Assembly: GCF_023074185.1 (NCBI RefSeq)
Contig: NZ_JADPKY010000018.1
Span: 1-64,000, forward strand
Source: Bradyrhizobium sp. 132
Lineage (GTDB): Bacteria > Pseudomonadota > Alphaproteobacteria > Rhizobiales > Xanthobacteraceae
DNA: 64,000 bases
Reading direction: 5' to 3'
Part shown: positions 12,821 through 19,013 of the stretch, in pieces
How the letters are laid out: every line of letters begins with the position of its first letter
Numbering within the stretch: the stretch's first letter is position 1
Notes under the pieces: generated by a model
What the model was told of the DNA's origin: nothing
Databases searched by the model: none
What the model saw: only the letters and a program-made list of their open reading frames with translations
Translations under genes and position numbers: made by a program

Positions 12821-16285
<3,465 letters not shown>

Positions 16286-16314
16286 CAACTCTCGCCGAAG
16301 TGGAATTTGGGCAC

Positions 16315-16346
16315 AAAAAAAGGGCGCGCTTGCTGCGCGTCCCTTT
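16315..16346 (-). terminator. U-run hairpin between the MFS gene and carB
   Basis: On the minus strand AAAGGG-A-CGCGC pairs with GCGCGCCCUUU, with loop AGCAA, then seven U residues. It is 83 nt after the MFS stop and 30 nt before the carB start, so it may end the MFS transcript or act as a carB attenuator. Confidence 0.8.
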
Positions 16347-16428
16347 GGCCGAGAGCGCGGTGGTCTCCCCTGCGCGCGGGTGGGTCTTAGACCAGTTTTC
16401 GGGGCGGCGAAACCCCGAAAAACGCCCA

Positions 16429-17598
16429 TCAACCGGCAATTTTGACCGGTTTTGGCCGGGCCTGCCAGCCACGGGCGAGGTGCACCAGAAGGGCAGCCGA
16501 AACGCTCAATCCGCCGACCCAGCCGAGATCAGCCGGGCTCCACGCAGCAAGTACGGCGCCTCCGAAGGCTCCGCCGATCGCGAAGCCGAGATACATGGCC
16601 GAGGCGTTGAGGGAGAGCGCAATCATCGAGGCCTTGGGGTCGATCCGGATGATGCTGGCGACCTGGGCCGGATAGAACGCCCAGCCCGAAAGCCCCTGGA
16701 GGAAGATCGGGCCCAGGATCGCGTAATGCGCCTGGCCGGGGAGGAATTTCAGCACCAGCGAATGCAGGAAAAGCGCGCTGGCCATGCCGGTCAGGCCGAG
16801 CGCCGCGGTGACGATGGTGCCCAGCCGGTCGGCCAACAGGCCGCCGAGCATGTTCCCGATCGCGGCGGCCGCGCCGAACACCAGGAGCGCGAGGCTGATG
16901 CGCGAGGCGTCGAAGCCCAGCGCGCGCAGCGGGACCGCGAAATAGGTGAACATTGTGAAGCCGCCGAGCGCCCATAAAATCGTGATCACGAGTGCGATCA
17001 GGACATTGCTGTGACGCGCCACCGCCAGCCGCTCGCTGAGCGAGGCCGTGTTGCGCGGCAGGCCGCGGGGTAGGCCGAGCAGGAGGCCGGCGAGCGCGAC
17101 GGCGCCGATCAGGGCGACCATGGCAAAGGTCGCACGCCATCCGAAGAGGCTGCCGACGAGATTGCCGAGGGGAACGCCGATGACGGTCGCAACCGTGAGT
17201 CCCGACGTGACCAGCGCCACCGCGCGGCCGCGCCGCTCCGGCGAGGCGACGGCCACGGATACGGCCAGCGCGGTCGGCATGCACAGCCCGGAGCCCAGCG
17301 CCATCAGCATGCGCGAGGCCAGCAGCAGGCCGTAATTGGACGCCACCGTCGCCGCGAGGTTTCCGGCGATGAAGGTCGATAGCGCCAGGGCCAGCACGGT
17401 GCGGCGGTCGATATTGTTCAGCGTCACCGCCAGGATTGGCGAGCCCACGGCATAGGTGAGGGCGTAGGTGGTGACCAATTGGCCGGCGGCGGAGACGGAA
17501 ATTGACAGGTCGGTTGCGATCGCCGGCAAAAGTCCTGCAATGACAAAGCCTTCCGTGCCGATCGCAAAGGCCGCCAGGGCCAACCAGAATACGCTCAT
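16429..17598 (-). CDS. MFS efflux transporter, DHA1 (AraJ/NepI-like) type
   Basis: The 389-residue protein has 12 predicted membrane spans. It starts [20 protein letters not shown] and has the motif A-like [18 protein letters not shown] loop between spans 2 and 3. Relatives export sugars, nucleosides or drugs. The ATG at 17598 has GGGGA about 9 nt upstream. It is divergent from an ArsR-type regulator, and the 111-nt gap holds two copies of a GTTCAA/TTGAAC palindrome, so repression by that regulator is likely. The substrate is unknown. Confidence 0.88.
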
Positions 17599-17612
17599 CG
17601 GAAAATCCCCAT

Positions 17613-17678
17613 GTTCAATGTTTATTGAACTATCAATTGGACCGGTGCATGAGTCAATTGGTTCAAGAACTATTGAAC
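17613..17678. promoter_or_regulatory. Paired operator palindromes in the MFS/ArsR divergent promoter
   Basis: GTTCAATGTTTATTGAAC at 17613-17630 and GTTCAAGAACTATTGAAC at 17661-17678 share the half-site GTTCAA with a 6-nt spacer. Two TCAATTGG repeats lie between them (17633-17640, 17653-17660). Binding by the adjacent ArsR protein is inferred. Confidence 0.7.
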
Positions 17679-17709
17679 ATCGAGGCCATTTCGCTATGAT
17701 CGTCAGACC

Positions 17710-18081
17710 ATGAGCCGCACGCCTCCCCACCCCACCCGCGAGCAGATCGAGCTACCGATGGTTCTGGATTGCCTGAGCGATCCGATCCGATTGGCGATCG
17801 TCTACCAGCTCGCCCAGCAGCAAGGTGTCAGTAGCGAATTGTGCTGCGGCGACTTCAATGCGCTCGGCGGCAAGTCGAATCTCGCCTATCACTTCGCGAA
17901 GCTGCGGGAATCCGGTCTGATGCAGACGCGCGTGGCGGGCACCAACCGCTTCATGCGGCTGCGACGCGAGGATCTGGATGCCCGTTTCCCCGGTCTGCTC
18001 GATGCGGTGGTGAAATCGGCAGCGAAGGATGCCGACCGGCTTCAGCTGCTGTCGGAGTGCGAAGCGCCTGCTGCGGGTTGA
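17710..18081 (+). CDS. ArsR-type winged-helix regulator
   Basis: The 123-residue protein starts MSRTPPHPTREQIELPMVLD. Its HTH core includes CLSDPIRLAIVYQLAQQ and KSNLAYHFAKLRESGLMQTR, typical of ArsR/SmtB dimers. A CC pair occurs in ELCCGDF near the HTH, but the classic metal-binding CVCDL is not present, so the inducer need not be a metal. It is divergent from the MFS gene and probably represses it and itself through the intergenic palindromes. Confidence 0.85.
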   Translation: MSRTPPHPTREQIELPMVLDCLSDPIRLAIVYQLAQQQGVSSELCCGDFNALGGKSNLAYHFAKLRESGLMQTRVAGTNRFMRLRREDLDARFPGLLDAVVKSAAKDADRLQLLSECEAPAAG

Positions 18082-18181
18082 AGTTGAGACGATTGCGCGC
18101 CAACGCCCGATTTCGCCCTTCGGGCTTCGTCGAGGCAGCCTTCGCTACGAAAGGGCTCGCCTGGCCGAAGCTGGCGAAGGC

Positions 18182-18257
18182 TGGAGACCCGGCCTGGATT
18201 TGAACCAGGATGAAGAGCGATGCACTGCTCTCGCGTAGACGCTTCCGCCACCGGGCC
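18182..18257 (-). tRNA. Atypical tRNA-Cys-like gene (GCA) with an 8-nt anticodon loop
   Basis: The 76-nt cloverleaf has a 7-bp acceptor (GGCCCGG/CCGGGTC, one G-U), discriminator U, encoded CCA, a 3-bp D stem (GCG/CGC) and a perfect T arm (CCTGG TTCAAAT CCAGG). The anticodon stem AGAGC/GCTCT closes an 8-nt loop, AGTGCATC, with GCA after a U. U73 plus GCA are tRNA-Cys identity features. Against a normal tRNA, the D loop (GAAGCGTCTA) lacks the G18-G19 pair and the anticodon loop is one base too long. It may be a divergent paralog, a frameshift-type tRNA or a pseudo-tRNA. Confidence 0.65.
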
Positions 18258-18311
18258 GTGGCGATCATTGCCGATCGGGGTGCGACAAGCCACCCCAGGC
18301 AATCGTTATGC

Positions 18312-19013
18312 TTAACGGACCAAAGGCGGCCGCGCGATGAAGGTCATCCGCCAGCGATTGTGGCCGATATTGCCGTTGGCGCGCTGGACCGCGAAGCCGG
18401 CGGCCTTGAGCCTGGCGGTGATCTCGTCCTCGCTATAGCGCTGCAGCCCGATGCGCGTACGCAGATGACGGTAATCTGACAGCGCGGTGCTGATCAGCCC
18501 GATCAGCGCATCTTTCAAAAAGCCGTGGCGCAGGCCGAAGCTGAGCAGCGCTGTGACGTCCCTGAACATGCCGACGTCGGGCTGGAGGATGTCGCCGAGC
18601 ACCAGCTTGCCGGAGGGCTTCAAAATACGTCGGAAGTTGAGGAGCGCGGCATCGAGCTCGTCCGGCGTCATGTATTGCGCGACCGAGTTCATCACGGCGA
18701 GATCGATCGACTGCTCCTGCATGTTGCGGACATCGTCGAGCGAGCGGACGCGGATCTTCGTGTTCGGGGCAAACCGCGCGATCAACCGGCCGCGAACGCC
18801 GGGCGCAGGCTCGGCGAGGATCAACTTGCCGCAGGCCGCCGCCACTTGGCTCGCGGACAGCGCCTCGCCGCAGGCATAGTCGAGCACGGTCGCCTCGGGC
18901 GAGGAGATATAGCCGATGATGTCCCGTGCGATGATCTGGAAGTGCAAGTCGCGATGCAACTTGCTGACATAGATCGTATGCGTCGAGTCGTAATAATCGA
19001 TCCAATCGTCCAT
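18312..19013 (-). CDS. Class I SAM-dependent methyltransferase
   Basis: The 233-residue protein has the SAM-binding motif I VLDYACGEAL at residues 43-52, the motif III-like VMNSVAQYMTPDEL and LKPSGKLVLGDI, all typical of methyltransferase type 11/12 folds. It begins MDDWIDYYDSTHTIYVSKLH, a start seen in sugar- or lipid-modifying relatives, but the substrate is unknown. The gene is alone; the tRNA-like gene lies 54 nt downstream on the same strand. Confidence 0.8.
   Translation of the reverse strand: MDDWIDYYDSTHTIYVSKLHRDLHFQIIARDIIGYISSPEATVLDYACGEALSASQVAAACGKLILAEPAPGVRGRLIARFAPNTKIRVRSLDDVRNMQEQSIDLAVMNSVAQYMTPDELDAALLNFRRILKPSGKLVLGDILQPDVGMFRDVTALLSFGLRHGFLKDALIGLISTALSDYRHLRTRIGLQRYSEDEITARLKAAGFAVQRANGNIGHNRWRMTFIARPPLVR

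What the first reader, a model, noticed from the sequence alone, without database searches (positions are those of the whole stretch)
18182..18257. tRNA-Cys-like gene with an 8-nt anticodon loop and no G18-G19
Acceptor stem, T arm, discriminator U and encoded CCA are perfect, and GCA after a U is the Cys anticodon. Yet the anticodon loop is AGTGCATC (8 nt) and the D loop lacks the GG that locks the tRNA elbow. Natural tRNAs with 8-nt loops are rare; laboratory ones read four-base codons. The intact stems suggest selection rather than random decay. It could be a frameshifting tRNA, a tRNA with a non-translation role, or a recent pseudogene.
Basis: partly seen in the sequence, partly recalled or inferred. 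Interest (0 to 1): 0.65.

Follow-up and report, generated by a model that had tools for sequence, protein, structure and literature searches.

The report
Remodelled second cysteine tRNA of Bradyrhizobium
This is a real, long-conserved extra cysteine-type tRNA gene of Bradyrhizobium and its relatives whose anticodon arm has been rebuilt so that it probably no longer reads codons in the ordinary way, yet it keeps the marks by which the cell would load it with cysteine; what the cell uses it for is not known.

Summary
In detail: 18182-18257 (minus strand) is a 76-nt tRNA gene that ARAGORN calls "tRNA-???" and Rfam's tRNA model misses. It is not random decay. Relatives show it to be a diverged paralog of the normal tRNA-Cys, present in 94 of 98 genomes of the genus (Bradyrhizobium) and 97 of 198 of the family (27 of 47 genera). 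Comparison corrects the "8-nt loop": the family has a covarying 6-bp anticodon stem, usually with a 6-nt loop (GUGCAA/GUGCAU); the window copy has an A.C at the sixth pair. Most copies lack GG in the D loop. U33 and purine-37, marks of normal decoding, drift, whereas GCA, U73 and C3-G70 (cysteine identity) are kept almost without exception. In another family of the order the body and U73 remain but the anticodon is replaced by a GGAA tetraloop on a covarying hairpin. A conserved -10-like element sits where transcription would start near nucleotide 1. Best reading: an expressed tRNA, charged by CysRS, that works off the ordinary decoding path. Expression, charging and the user are untested. Pseudogene is rejected, frameshifting unlikely. 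My searches found no description in print. New variant of the non-decoding tRNA kind.

The parts
18182..18257 (-). remodelled tRNA-Cys paralog, 76 nt including CCA
   Evidence: in 94 of 98 genus genomes
18251..18257 (-). 5' strand of the acceptor stem (pairs with 18186-18192); U73 at 18185, CCA at 18182-18184
   Evidence: 99.8% of acceptor cells paired, U73 80 of 80 in alignment A1
18214..18231 (-). anticodon arm: 5 bp plus a sixth position A18226.C18219 that pairs in most relatives; loop GTGCAT
   Evidence: sixth pair GC 32, AT 14, CG 13, TA 9, AC 8, TG 1, TC 1, gap 2 of 80
18221..18223 (-). GCA at the anticodon position, followed by a pyrimidine (U37)
   Evidence: GCA in 79 of 80 in A1, 92 of 95 distinct sequences
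18193..18209 (-). T arm, the most conserved part
   Evidence: 99.6% mean pairwise identity among 57 genus copies of 76 nt
18264..18269 (-). -10-like element AATGAT at -12 to -7 of the tRNA (transcription would start near nucleotide 1)
   Evidence: A-11 and T-7 together in 67 of 70 genus and 33 of 58 other family loci; 0-13 of 58 at shifted positions. The generic consensus scan found no promoter
18306..18315 (-). TTAAGCATAA, the local form of a conserved TTARGNTTAA-like element at -58 (here it overlaps the stop codon of the upstream gene)
   Evidence: 80 of 130 loci, 72 of them at -58/-59; shuffles 1.1 of 130; the expression was written after looking at the sequences
18312..19013 (-). upstream class I SAM methyltransferase gene: conserved neighbour, not shown to be a partner
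   Evidence: methyltransferase-carB order also exists without an intact tRNA
12821..16432 (-). carB (ORF as listed mechanically; downstream neighbour in many relatives)
16429..18081 (.). MFS transporter (16429-17730 -) and ArsR-family regulator (17710-18081 +), lying between tRNA and carB here
   Evidence: where carB is within the fetched flank, its match begins about 0.24-0.84 kb from the start of the tRNA

Best explanation
It is an expressed, vertically inherited paralog of tRNA-Cys that the cell's CysRS probably still charges with cysteine, but which has been released from ordinary codon reading and serves off the ribosome, as a cysteine donor or as a charging-dependent signal. Shown by comparison: it is a structured RNA gene under selection; acceptor and T arm are nearly frozen; the anticodon arm is kept as a longer hairpin; decoding features drift (U33, purine 37, loop size) while cysteine identity marks (U73, C3-G70, GCA) stay; a -10-like element is kept. 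Inferred: that it is transcribed (start near nucleotide 1), that CysRS charges it, that it does not decode, and that a non-ribosomal user exists.
For: Present in 94 of 98 genus and 97 of 198 family genomes. A normal tRNA-Cys is matched in 96 of 98 genus genomes (92 of 92 good ones; identity 81-100%, anticodons not read one by one), and the own genome has one strong CysRS match. Covariation. In A1 GCA 79 of 80, U73 80 of 80, C3-G70 80 of 80, 2-71 G-C 66, G.U 13, A-U 1, while position 37 is a pyrimidine in 30 of 80 and position 33 is not U in 6 of 80; over 95 distinct sequences the base before GCA is U 75, C 10, G 5, A 2. A review lists U73, G2-C71, C3-G70 and G34 C35 A36 as bacterial cysteine determinants, U73 alone being enough for minihelices (PMC9976931, passages). 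Family f35: same acceptor, T arm and U73, GGAA tetraloop on a covarying 7-bp hairpin, in 10 of 10 g81 genomes tried. Upstream conservation.
Against: U33 is kept in 75 of 92 GCA-bearing distinct sequences, which fits leftover or real decoding. GCA is lost in f35 (10 of 10 g81 genomes) and in 3 of 95 distinct f1 sequences, so charging by CysRS may not be general. Loss of G18-G19 and an A at position 15 (numbered by eye) could weaken CysRS binding. No user enzyme was found: the neighbouring methyltransferase sits next to carB without an intact tRNA in 6 of 20 loci. By DNA search 101 of 198 family genomes lack the gene (one of 20 re-examined, L376, was a miss), and one copy is decayed (L372), so it is dispensable in places. 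The window copy taken alone is not closest to tRNA-Cys (Met 19.5, Leu and Cys 18.5). No expression data were seen.
Confidence: 0.5

Rival explanations
1. A charged tRNA that still decodes cysteine codons, perhaps weakly or under special conditions (a specialised isoacceptor).
For: U before GCA is kept in 75 of 95 distinct sequences; some genomes of other families carry a second tRNA-Cys with a near-normal 5-bp stem and 7-nt loop (L312, L313, L315, L316, L320), a possible earlier state.
Against: A sixth pair with an extra loop base, pyrimidine-37 in 30 of 80, loss of U33 in several lineages, loss of GG in the D loop in 69 of 95, and a GGAA tetraloop in f35. A normal tRNA-Cys is matched in 92 of 92 good genus genomes.
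Confidence: 0.2
2. An uncharged or incidentally charged regulatory RNA: for example a decoy for CysRS or a tRNA-processing enzyme, or a source of tRNA-derived fragments.
For: f35 lost GCA but kept the rest; tRNAOther of Bacillus cereus is a precedent of a tRNA-like RNA reported to act outside translation (PMC3399842, passages).
Against: U73, C3-G70 and GCA are held more tightly in f1 than a mere fold would need.
Confidence: 0.22
3. A frameshift (four-base) suppressor tRNA with an 8-nt anticodon loop.
For: Literal 8-nt loop between 5-bp stems in the window copy; 8 of 80 aligned sequences have A.C at the sixth pair.
Against: The sixth pair covaries through four Watson-Crick types with 37 double changes; loops of 4, 6 and 7 nt occur in relatives.
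Confidence: 0.04
4. A decaying tRNA pseudogene or an integration site kept by mobile elements.
For: A decayed copy (L372) and two diverged extra copies in one genome (L136, L137); an MFS/ArsR pair lies between tRNA and carB here.
Against: Paired stems, 92% identity against 31-38% in outer flanks, conserved upstream region. In the own genome the longest other match to its 3' end is 15 nt (positions 60-74, C151), so there is no clear att duplicate; no match in phages or plasmids at E 1e-3.
Confidence: 0.04

Closest known systems
canonical bacterial tRNA-Cys (GCA)
   Same: D stem GCG/CGC, GCA, U73, C3-G70, CCA; 79 of 95 distinct family sequences are closest to tRNA-Cys among the 47 tRNAs of the own genome (13 to a tRNA-Met, 3 to a tRNA-Leu)
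   Different: 6-bp/6-nt anticodon arm, mostly no GG in the D loop, drifting U33 and position 37, missed by the Rfam tRNA model
Bacillus cereus tRNAOther (pseudo-tRNA; PMC3399842, passages)
   Same: tRNA-like gene beside a normal set, reported not to function in translation
   Different: Trp anticodon and poor lysylation there; a different phylum (recalled); here cysteine marks and family-wide inheritance
selC* tRNA-Cys and allo-tRNAs (PMC7609411, passages)
   Same: extra tRNA-Cys with U73 and GCA and an unusual shape
   Different: those have a 12-bp branch such as 8/4 (9/3 is recalled); here 7/5. One strong CysRS match in the genome; selB was not searched
tRNA-Pyl (PMC7609411, passages)
   Same: 6-bp anticodon stem, no G18-G19
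   Different: CUA anticodon, G73, small variable loop, own PylRS; here GCA and U73
yeast mitochondrial tRNA-Thr(UAG) with 8-nt loop (PMC7609411, passages)
   Same: literal 8-nt anticodon loop
   Different: here the two outer loop bases pair in most relatives

Membership tests
tRNA-Cys (decoding isoacceptor) | U73, G2-C71, C3-G70 and GCA | tested here: met
   U73 80/80, C3-G70 80/80, GCA 79/80; 2-71 G-C 66, G.U 13 (window copy among them), A-U 1 of 80
tRNA-Cys (decoding isoacceptor) | 5-bp anticodon stem, 7-nt loop with U33 and purine 37 | tested here: not met
   6-bp stem, mostly 6-nt loop; base before GCA not U in 17 of 92; pyrimidine-37 in 30 of 80, window copy U37
tRNA-Cys (decoding isoacceptor) | G18-G19 in the D loop | tested here: not met
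   none in the window copy; GG within RNA positions 15-24 in 26 of 95 distinct sequences
tRNA-Cys (decoding isoacceptor) | charged with cysteine and used by the ribosome | not testable with these tools
   needs biochemistry
tRNA pseudogene | stems decay without compensation | tested here: not met
   98.3% of cells paired, 85 double-change cells against a shuffle mean of 24.2, in 80 of 95 distinct sequences
frameshift suppressor tRNA | true 8-nt anticodon loop | tested here: not met
   sixth pair formed in 69 of 78 sequences with letters; the window copy itself is one of 8 with A.C
selC* tRNA-Cys / allo-tRNA | 12-bp branch as 8/4 or 9/3 | tested here: not met
   7/5 in A1; L112, L115, L121, L129 and L376 can pair one extra base below the T stem (by eye)
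tRNA-Pyl | CUA anticodon and G73 | tested here: not met
   GCA and U73
non-decoding tRNA-like RNA (as tRNAOther) | tRNA-shaped transcript not used by the ribosome | tested here: inconclusive
   drift of decoding features and GGAA tetraloop in f35; no expression or polysome data

The most novel reading that the evidence does not exclude
A group of alphaproteobacteria has long kept a tRNA-Cys descendant that left the ribosome but is still loaded with cysteine and hands it to an unknown non-ribosomal acceptor; in one family the anticodon has been replaced altogether by a GNRA tetraloop hairpin, leaving a charged acceptor/T-arm device started at nucleotide 1 by its own promoter.
Probability: 0.3. 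Interest if true: 0.82.

Novelty: new variant of a known kind. Interest (0 to 1): 0.62.

Why it matters
If right, it gives a natural series from a second tRNA-Cys with a near-normal loop, through a 6-bp/6-nt arm, to a GNRA-capped hairpin, in which aminoacylation marks and decoding marks come apart. It points to an undiscovered cysteine-tRNA-dependent (or tRNA-sensing) process in Bradyrhizobium, Rhodopseudomonas, Nitrobacter and Afipia, organisms that can be grown in the laboratory, and shows that a curated tRNA model overlooks such genes.

Tried and rejected
Methyltransferase as partner: adjacency is striking (70 of 70 genus loci, 39 of 60 others), but of 20 methyltransferase loci taken from genomes without a BLAST-level tRNA, 6 have carB downstream with no intact tRNA (L359, L364, L369, L371, L372, L377), so the gene order does not need the tRNA. 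A dedicated second CysRS: one strong PF01406 match in the own genome (L378); two weaker pieces, one of them over the cut-off, lie in one 709-aa frame on C67 and were not identified further. Mobile-element site: no clear second copy of the 3' end, no match in plasmids or phages. Generic promoter/terminator scan: nothing. The count of the base before GCA was wrong (it took the first GCA) and is replaced. ORF clusters were blurred by shadow frames and were replaced. Paralogy by BLAST: the odd gene does not find the own tRNA-Cys at E up to 10; the link rests on the covariance model (two matches in the own genome) and on global alignment of the relatives. Known Cys-tRNA users (PEARLs and others) and selB were not searched for. 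Common origin of the f35 gene rests on the shared acceptor, T arm, U73 and a similar upstream element; no tree was made.

Literature: ten searches of an open-access library showed no description of this gene in the rows listed (several listings were cut); supplementary files and tRNA databases could not be searched.

Full report
What is there. The minus strand of 18182-18257 encodes a 76-nt tRNA with a 7-bp acceptor stem, 3-bp D stem, 5-bp T stem, U73 and CCA. ARAGORN calls it 'tRNA-???'; Rfam's tRNA model does not match it at the gathering score or at E up to 10. The own genome has 47 tRNAs over Rfam's cut-off, among them one tRNA-Cys (L165) with the same D stem and U73. The window copy has drifted far: BLAST with it does not find that tRNA-Cys at E up to 10, and by global alignment it is about equally near to a tRNA-Met (19.5), a tRNA-Leu (18.5) and the tRNA-Cys (18.5). 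Its relatives settle it: 79 of 95 distinct sequences are closest to tRNA-Cys, 13 to the tRNA-Met, 3 to the tRNA-Leu, and a covariance model of the family finds two matches in the own genome.

Distribution. By DNA search the gene is in 94 of 98 genomes of the genus (88 of 92 good ones; the four without are G006, G041, G051, G091), and in 97 of 198 genomes and 27 of 47 genera of the family. The genus is Bradyrhizobium: several same-genus contigs have the lengths of named Bradyrhizobium records. With the model R1 the own gene scores 96.5 bits and normal tRNA-Cys genes about 61-73. The ranges overlap for diverged copies (L376 scores 70.7, three f35 copies 71.8-72.4), so R1 alone cannot exclude distant forms. 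In the order (297 genomes) genes over 75 bits occur outside the family only in f35, f6 and f41. In the class (289 genomes) nothing but the own gene exceeds 72 bits. In the phylum (398 genomes) 12 genomes pass E 1e-15, 11 of the family and one of f35.

Structure and selection. I fetched 130 loci with 131 copies: 70 of the 94 genus genomes (plus two extra copies of one of the others, G066) and 55 of the 86 other family genomes with a match, 95 distinct sequences. For alignment A1 I left out 15 of these: L136 and L137 (degenerate copies) and 13 with indels in the anticodon arm, longer T stems or redundant lineage (L099, L111, L112, L114, L115, L117, L120, L121, L122, L124 second copy, L125, L126, L129). 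On the remaining 80, 98.3% of 1673 cells pair, 9 of 21 pairs show double changes, and 85 double-change cells compare with 24 in shuffles; leaving out awkward rows favours these figures. The sixth anticodon-stem pair is G-C 32, A-U 14, C-G 13, U-A 9, A.C 8, U.G 1, U.C 1, gap 2. The commonest loops are GUGCAA (40) and GUGCAU (22). The window copy is one of the A.C cases, hence its literal 8-nt loop.

Where constraint lies. Among the 57 of 70 genus copies that have 76 nt the mean pairwise identity is 92% overall, T arm 99.6%, acceptor with CCA 97%, D arm 95%, anticodon arm 79%; flanks beyond -60 and beyond +20 are at 31-38%, +1 to +20 59%, -60 to -20 about 53%, -20 to -1 71%. Flanks were compared without gaps, which understates them. 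The acceptor/T half is nearly frozen and the anticodon arm is kept as a hairpin rather than as a sequence.

Decoding marks against charging marks. In A1: GCA 79 of 80, U73 80 of 80, C3-G70 80 of 80, position 2-71 G-C 66, G.U 13 (the window copy among them), A-U 1; position 37 is A 50, U 26, C 4; position 33 is U 74, C 3, G 2, A 1. Over all 95 distinct sequences GCA is present in 92; the base before it is U 75, C 10, G 5, A 2; L101, L114 and L137 lack GCA; position 73 is U in 94 of 95. A review gives U73, G2-C71, C3-G70 and G34 C35 A36 as bacterial cysteine determinants and says U73 alone suffices for minihelices (PMC9976931, passages). That purine-37 and U33 are near-universal in decoding tRNAs is recalled. 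The pattern is what selection for charging by CysRS, with weak or no selection for codon reading, would leave. The own genome has one strong CysRS match. A normal tRNA-Cys is matched in 96 of 98 genus genomes at 81-100% identity.

Beyond the family. In f35 (genus g81) a gene between gyrA (upstream) and what reads as coaD (downstream in the loci that reach it; both names are my reading of the translations) has the same acceptor, T arm and U73, but its anticodon arm is a 7-bp hairpin with a GGAA tetraloop: 10 of 10 g81 genomes and 0 of 1 g165 genome tried, these being the f35 genomes listed with a match. In 8 of the 10 sequences aligned, 100% of cells pair, with double changes at 4 pairs. Each of these genomes has two R1 matches; the one second gene that I read is a normal tRNA-Cys (L327). 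Several f35 loci carry a TTARGNTTAA-like element near -60 and a hairpin plus T-run just after CCA (by eye). In f6 (L311) the 6-bp/6-nt GUGCAA form recurs (by eye); in f41 and f23 second tRNA-Cys genes have near-normal arms. I read this as a series; the order of events is inferred and no tree was made.

Upstream region. In the f1 loci A at -11 and T at -7, the two strongest positions of a bacterial -10 element (recalled), occur together in 67 of 70 genus and 33 of 58 other family loci, against 0-13 of 58 at shifted positions. If that is the -10, transcription starts at about nucleotide 1 of the tRNA, with no leader. A TTARGNTTAA-like element occurs in 80 of 130 loci, 72 of them at -58/-59, against 1.1 in shuffles; I wrote the expression after seeing the sequences, and loci are related. 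In 31 of the 47 normal tRNA genes of the own genome no column near -11/-7 stands out. The generic scan found no promoter in the window, so the promoter rests on comparison alone.

Neighbourhood. Within flanks of 1-1.5 kb a class I methyltransferase gene lies upstream in 70 of 70 genus loci and 39 of 60 others, carB downstream in 34 of 70 and 36 of 60, and neither in 13 of 60 (the 60 include L136 and L137). Of 20 methyltransferase loci from genomes without the tRNA by BLAST, 6 have carB downstream without an intact tRNA; one of these (L372) holds a decayed tRNA of 40.8 bits, and another locus (L376) an intact gene that BLAST missed. The methyltransferase is therefore a neighbour, and the tRNA can be lost.

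Mechanism and confidence. Real functional RNA gene: about 0.95. Not an ordinary decoding tRNA: about 0.75. Cysteine-accepting in f1: about 0.65. Off-ribosome work as cysteine donor or charging-dependent signal: about 0.5 as stated, with no user known. Cysteinyl-tRNA has non-ribosomal users elsewhere (3-thiaglutamate pathway, PMC9016710, start of abstract in the listing); I did not look for such enzymes here. In print I found only analogues (tRNAOther, PMC3399842, passages; selC* tRNA-Cys, allo-tRNA, tRNA-Pyl and yeast mitochondrial tRNA-Thr, PMC7609411, passages). Three further papers were seen in passages without bearing on this gene: PMC8124441, PMC8007984 and a study of non-coding RNAs in B. 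japonicum, PMC5082802, whose main text has no occurrence of 'tRNA'; its supplements were not seen.

Noticed in passing
L195:6952-7023 (-), L217:5993-6065 (+), L233:2368-2440 (+), L124:1181-1253 (+), L089, L130, L126: In Nitrobacter (and L126, another genus) a second odd tRNA, tRNA-Gly-like with a 6-nt anticodon loop UUCCAG or UUCCAA (by eye; ARAGORN 'tRNA-??? (cc)'), lies a few hundred bases from a copy of the odd tRNA-Cys; a relative (L085) has a 7-nt loop and is called tRNA-Gly(tcc).
   Followed up: partly
window 18306-18315; also upstream of the tRNA in L314, L318, L325: A TTARGNTTAA-like element at a nearly fixed place (-58/-59 in f1) upstream of the tRNA, seen by eye in f35 as well; I cannot name its binding factor.
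   Followed up: partly
window 18100-18181: Just 3' of CCA many Bradyrhizobium copies run into GC-rich hairpin-like repeats (GCCTTCGC... or CGCTTCGC... types) that differ between related species (by eye).
   Followed up: no
L136, L137 (one genome, G066): Two extra diverged copies with altered acceptor stems; L137 has lost GCA.
   Followed up: no
L093, L122, L123 (one genome, G217): Three copies in one genome, all with GCA and a 7-nt loop on a 6-bp stem but A or C instead of U33.
   Followed up: no
L239 (JAUEPE010000011.1) and L268 (NZ_AKZI01000035.1): Records titled Frankia sp. RB7 and Rhodovulum sp. PH10 have contig lengths equal to contigs placed in the window's genus (L012) and family (L117), so the titles are probably wrong.
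   Followed up: no
L192 (MAG: Kaiparowitsia implicata): A pattern match in a cyanobacterial MAG where ARAGORN finds no tRNA; chance or contamination.
   Followed up: no
window 16429-18081: An MFS transporter gene (best NCBIfam model Cmx/CmrA efflux, 220 bits, below its cut-off of 400) with a divergent ArsR-family regulator lies between the tRNA and carB here; carB is not within the fetched flank in 36 of 70 genus loci, whose inserts I did not compare.
   Followed up: no
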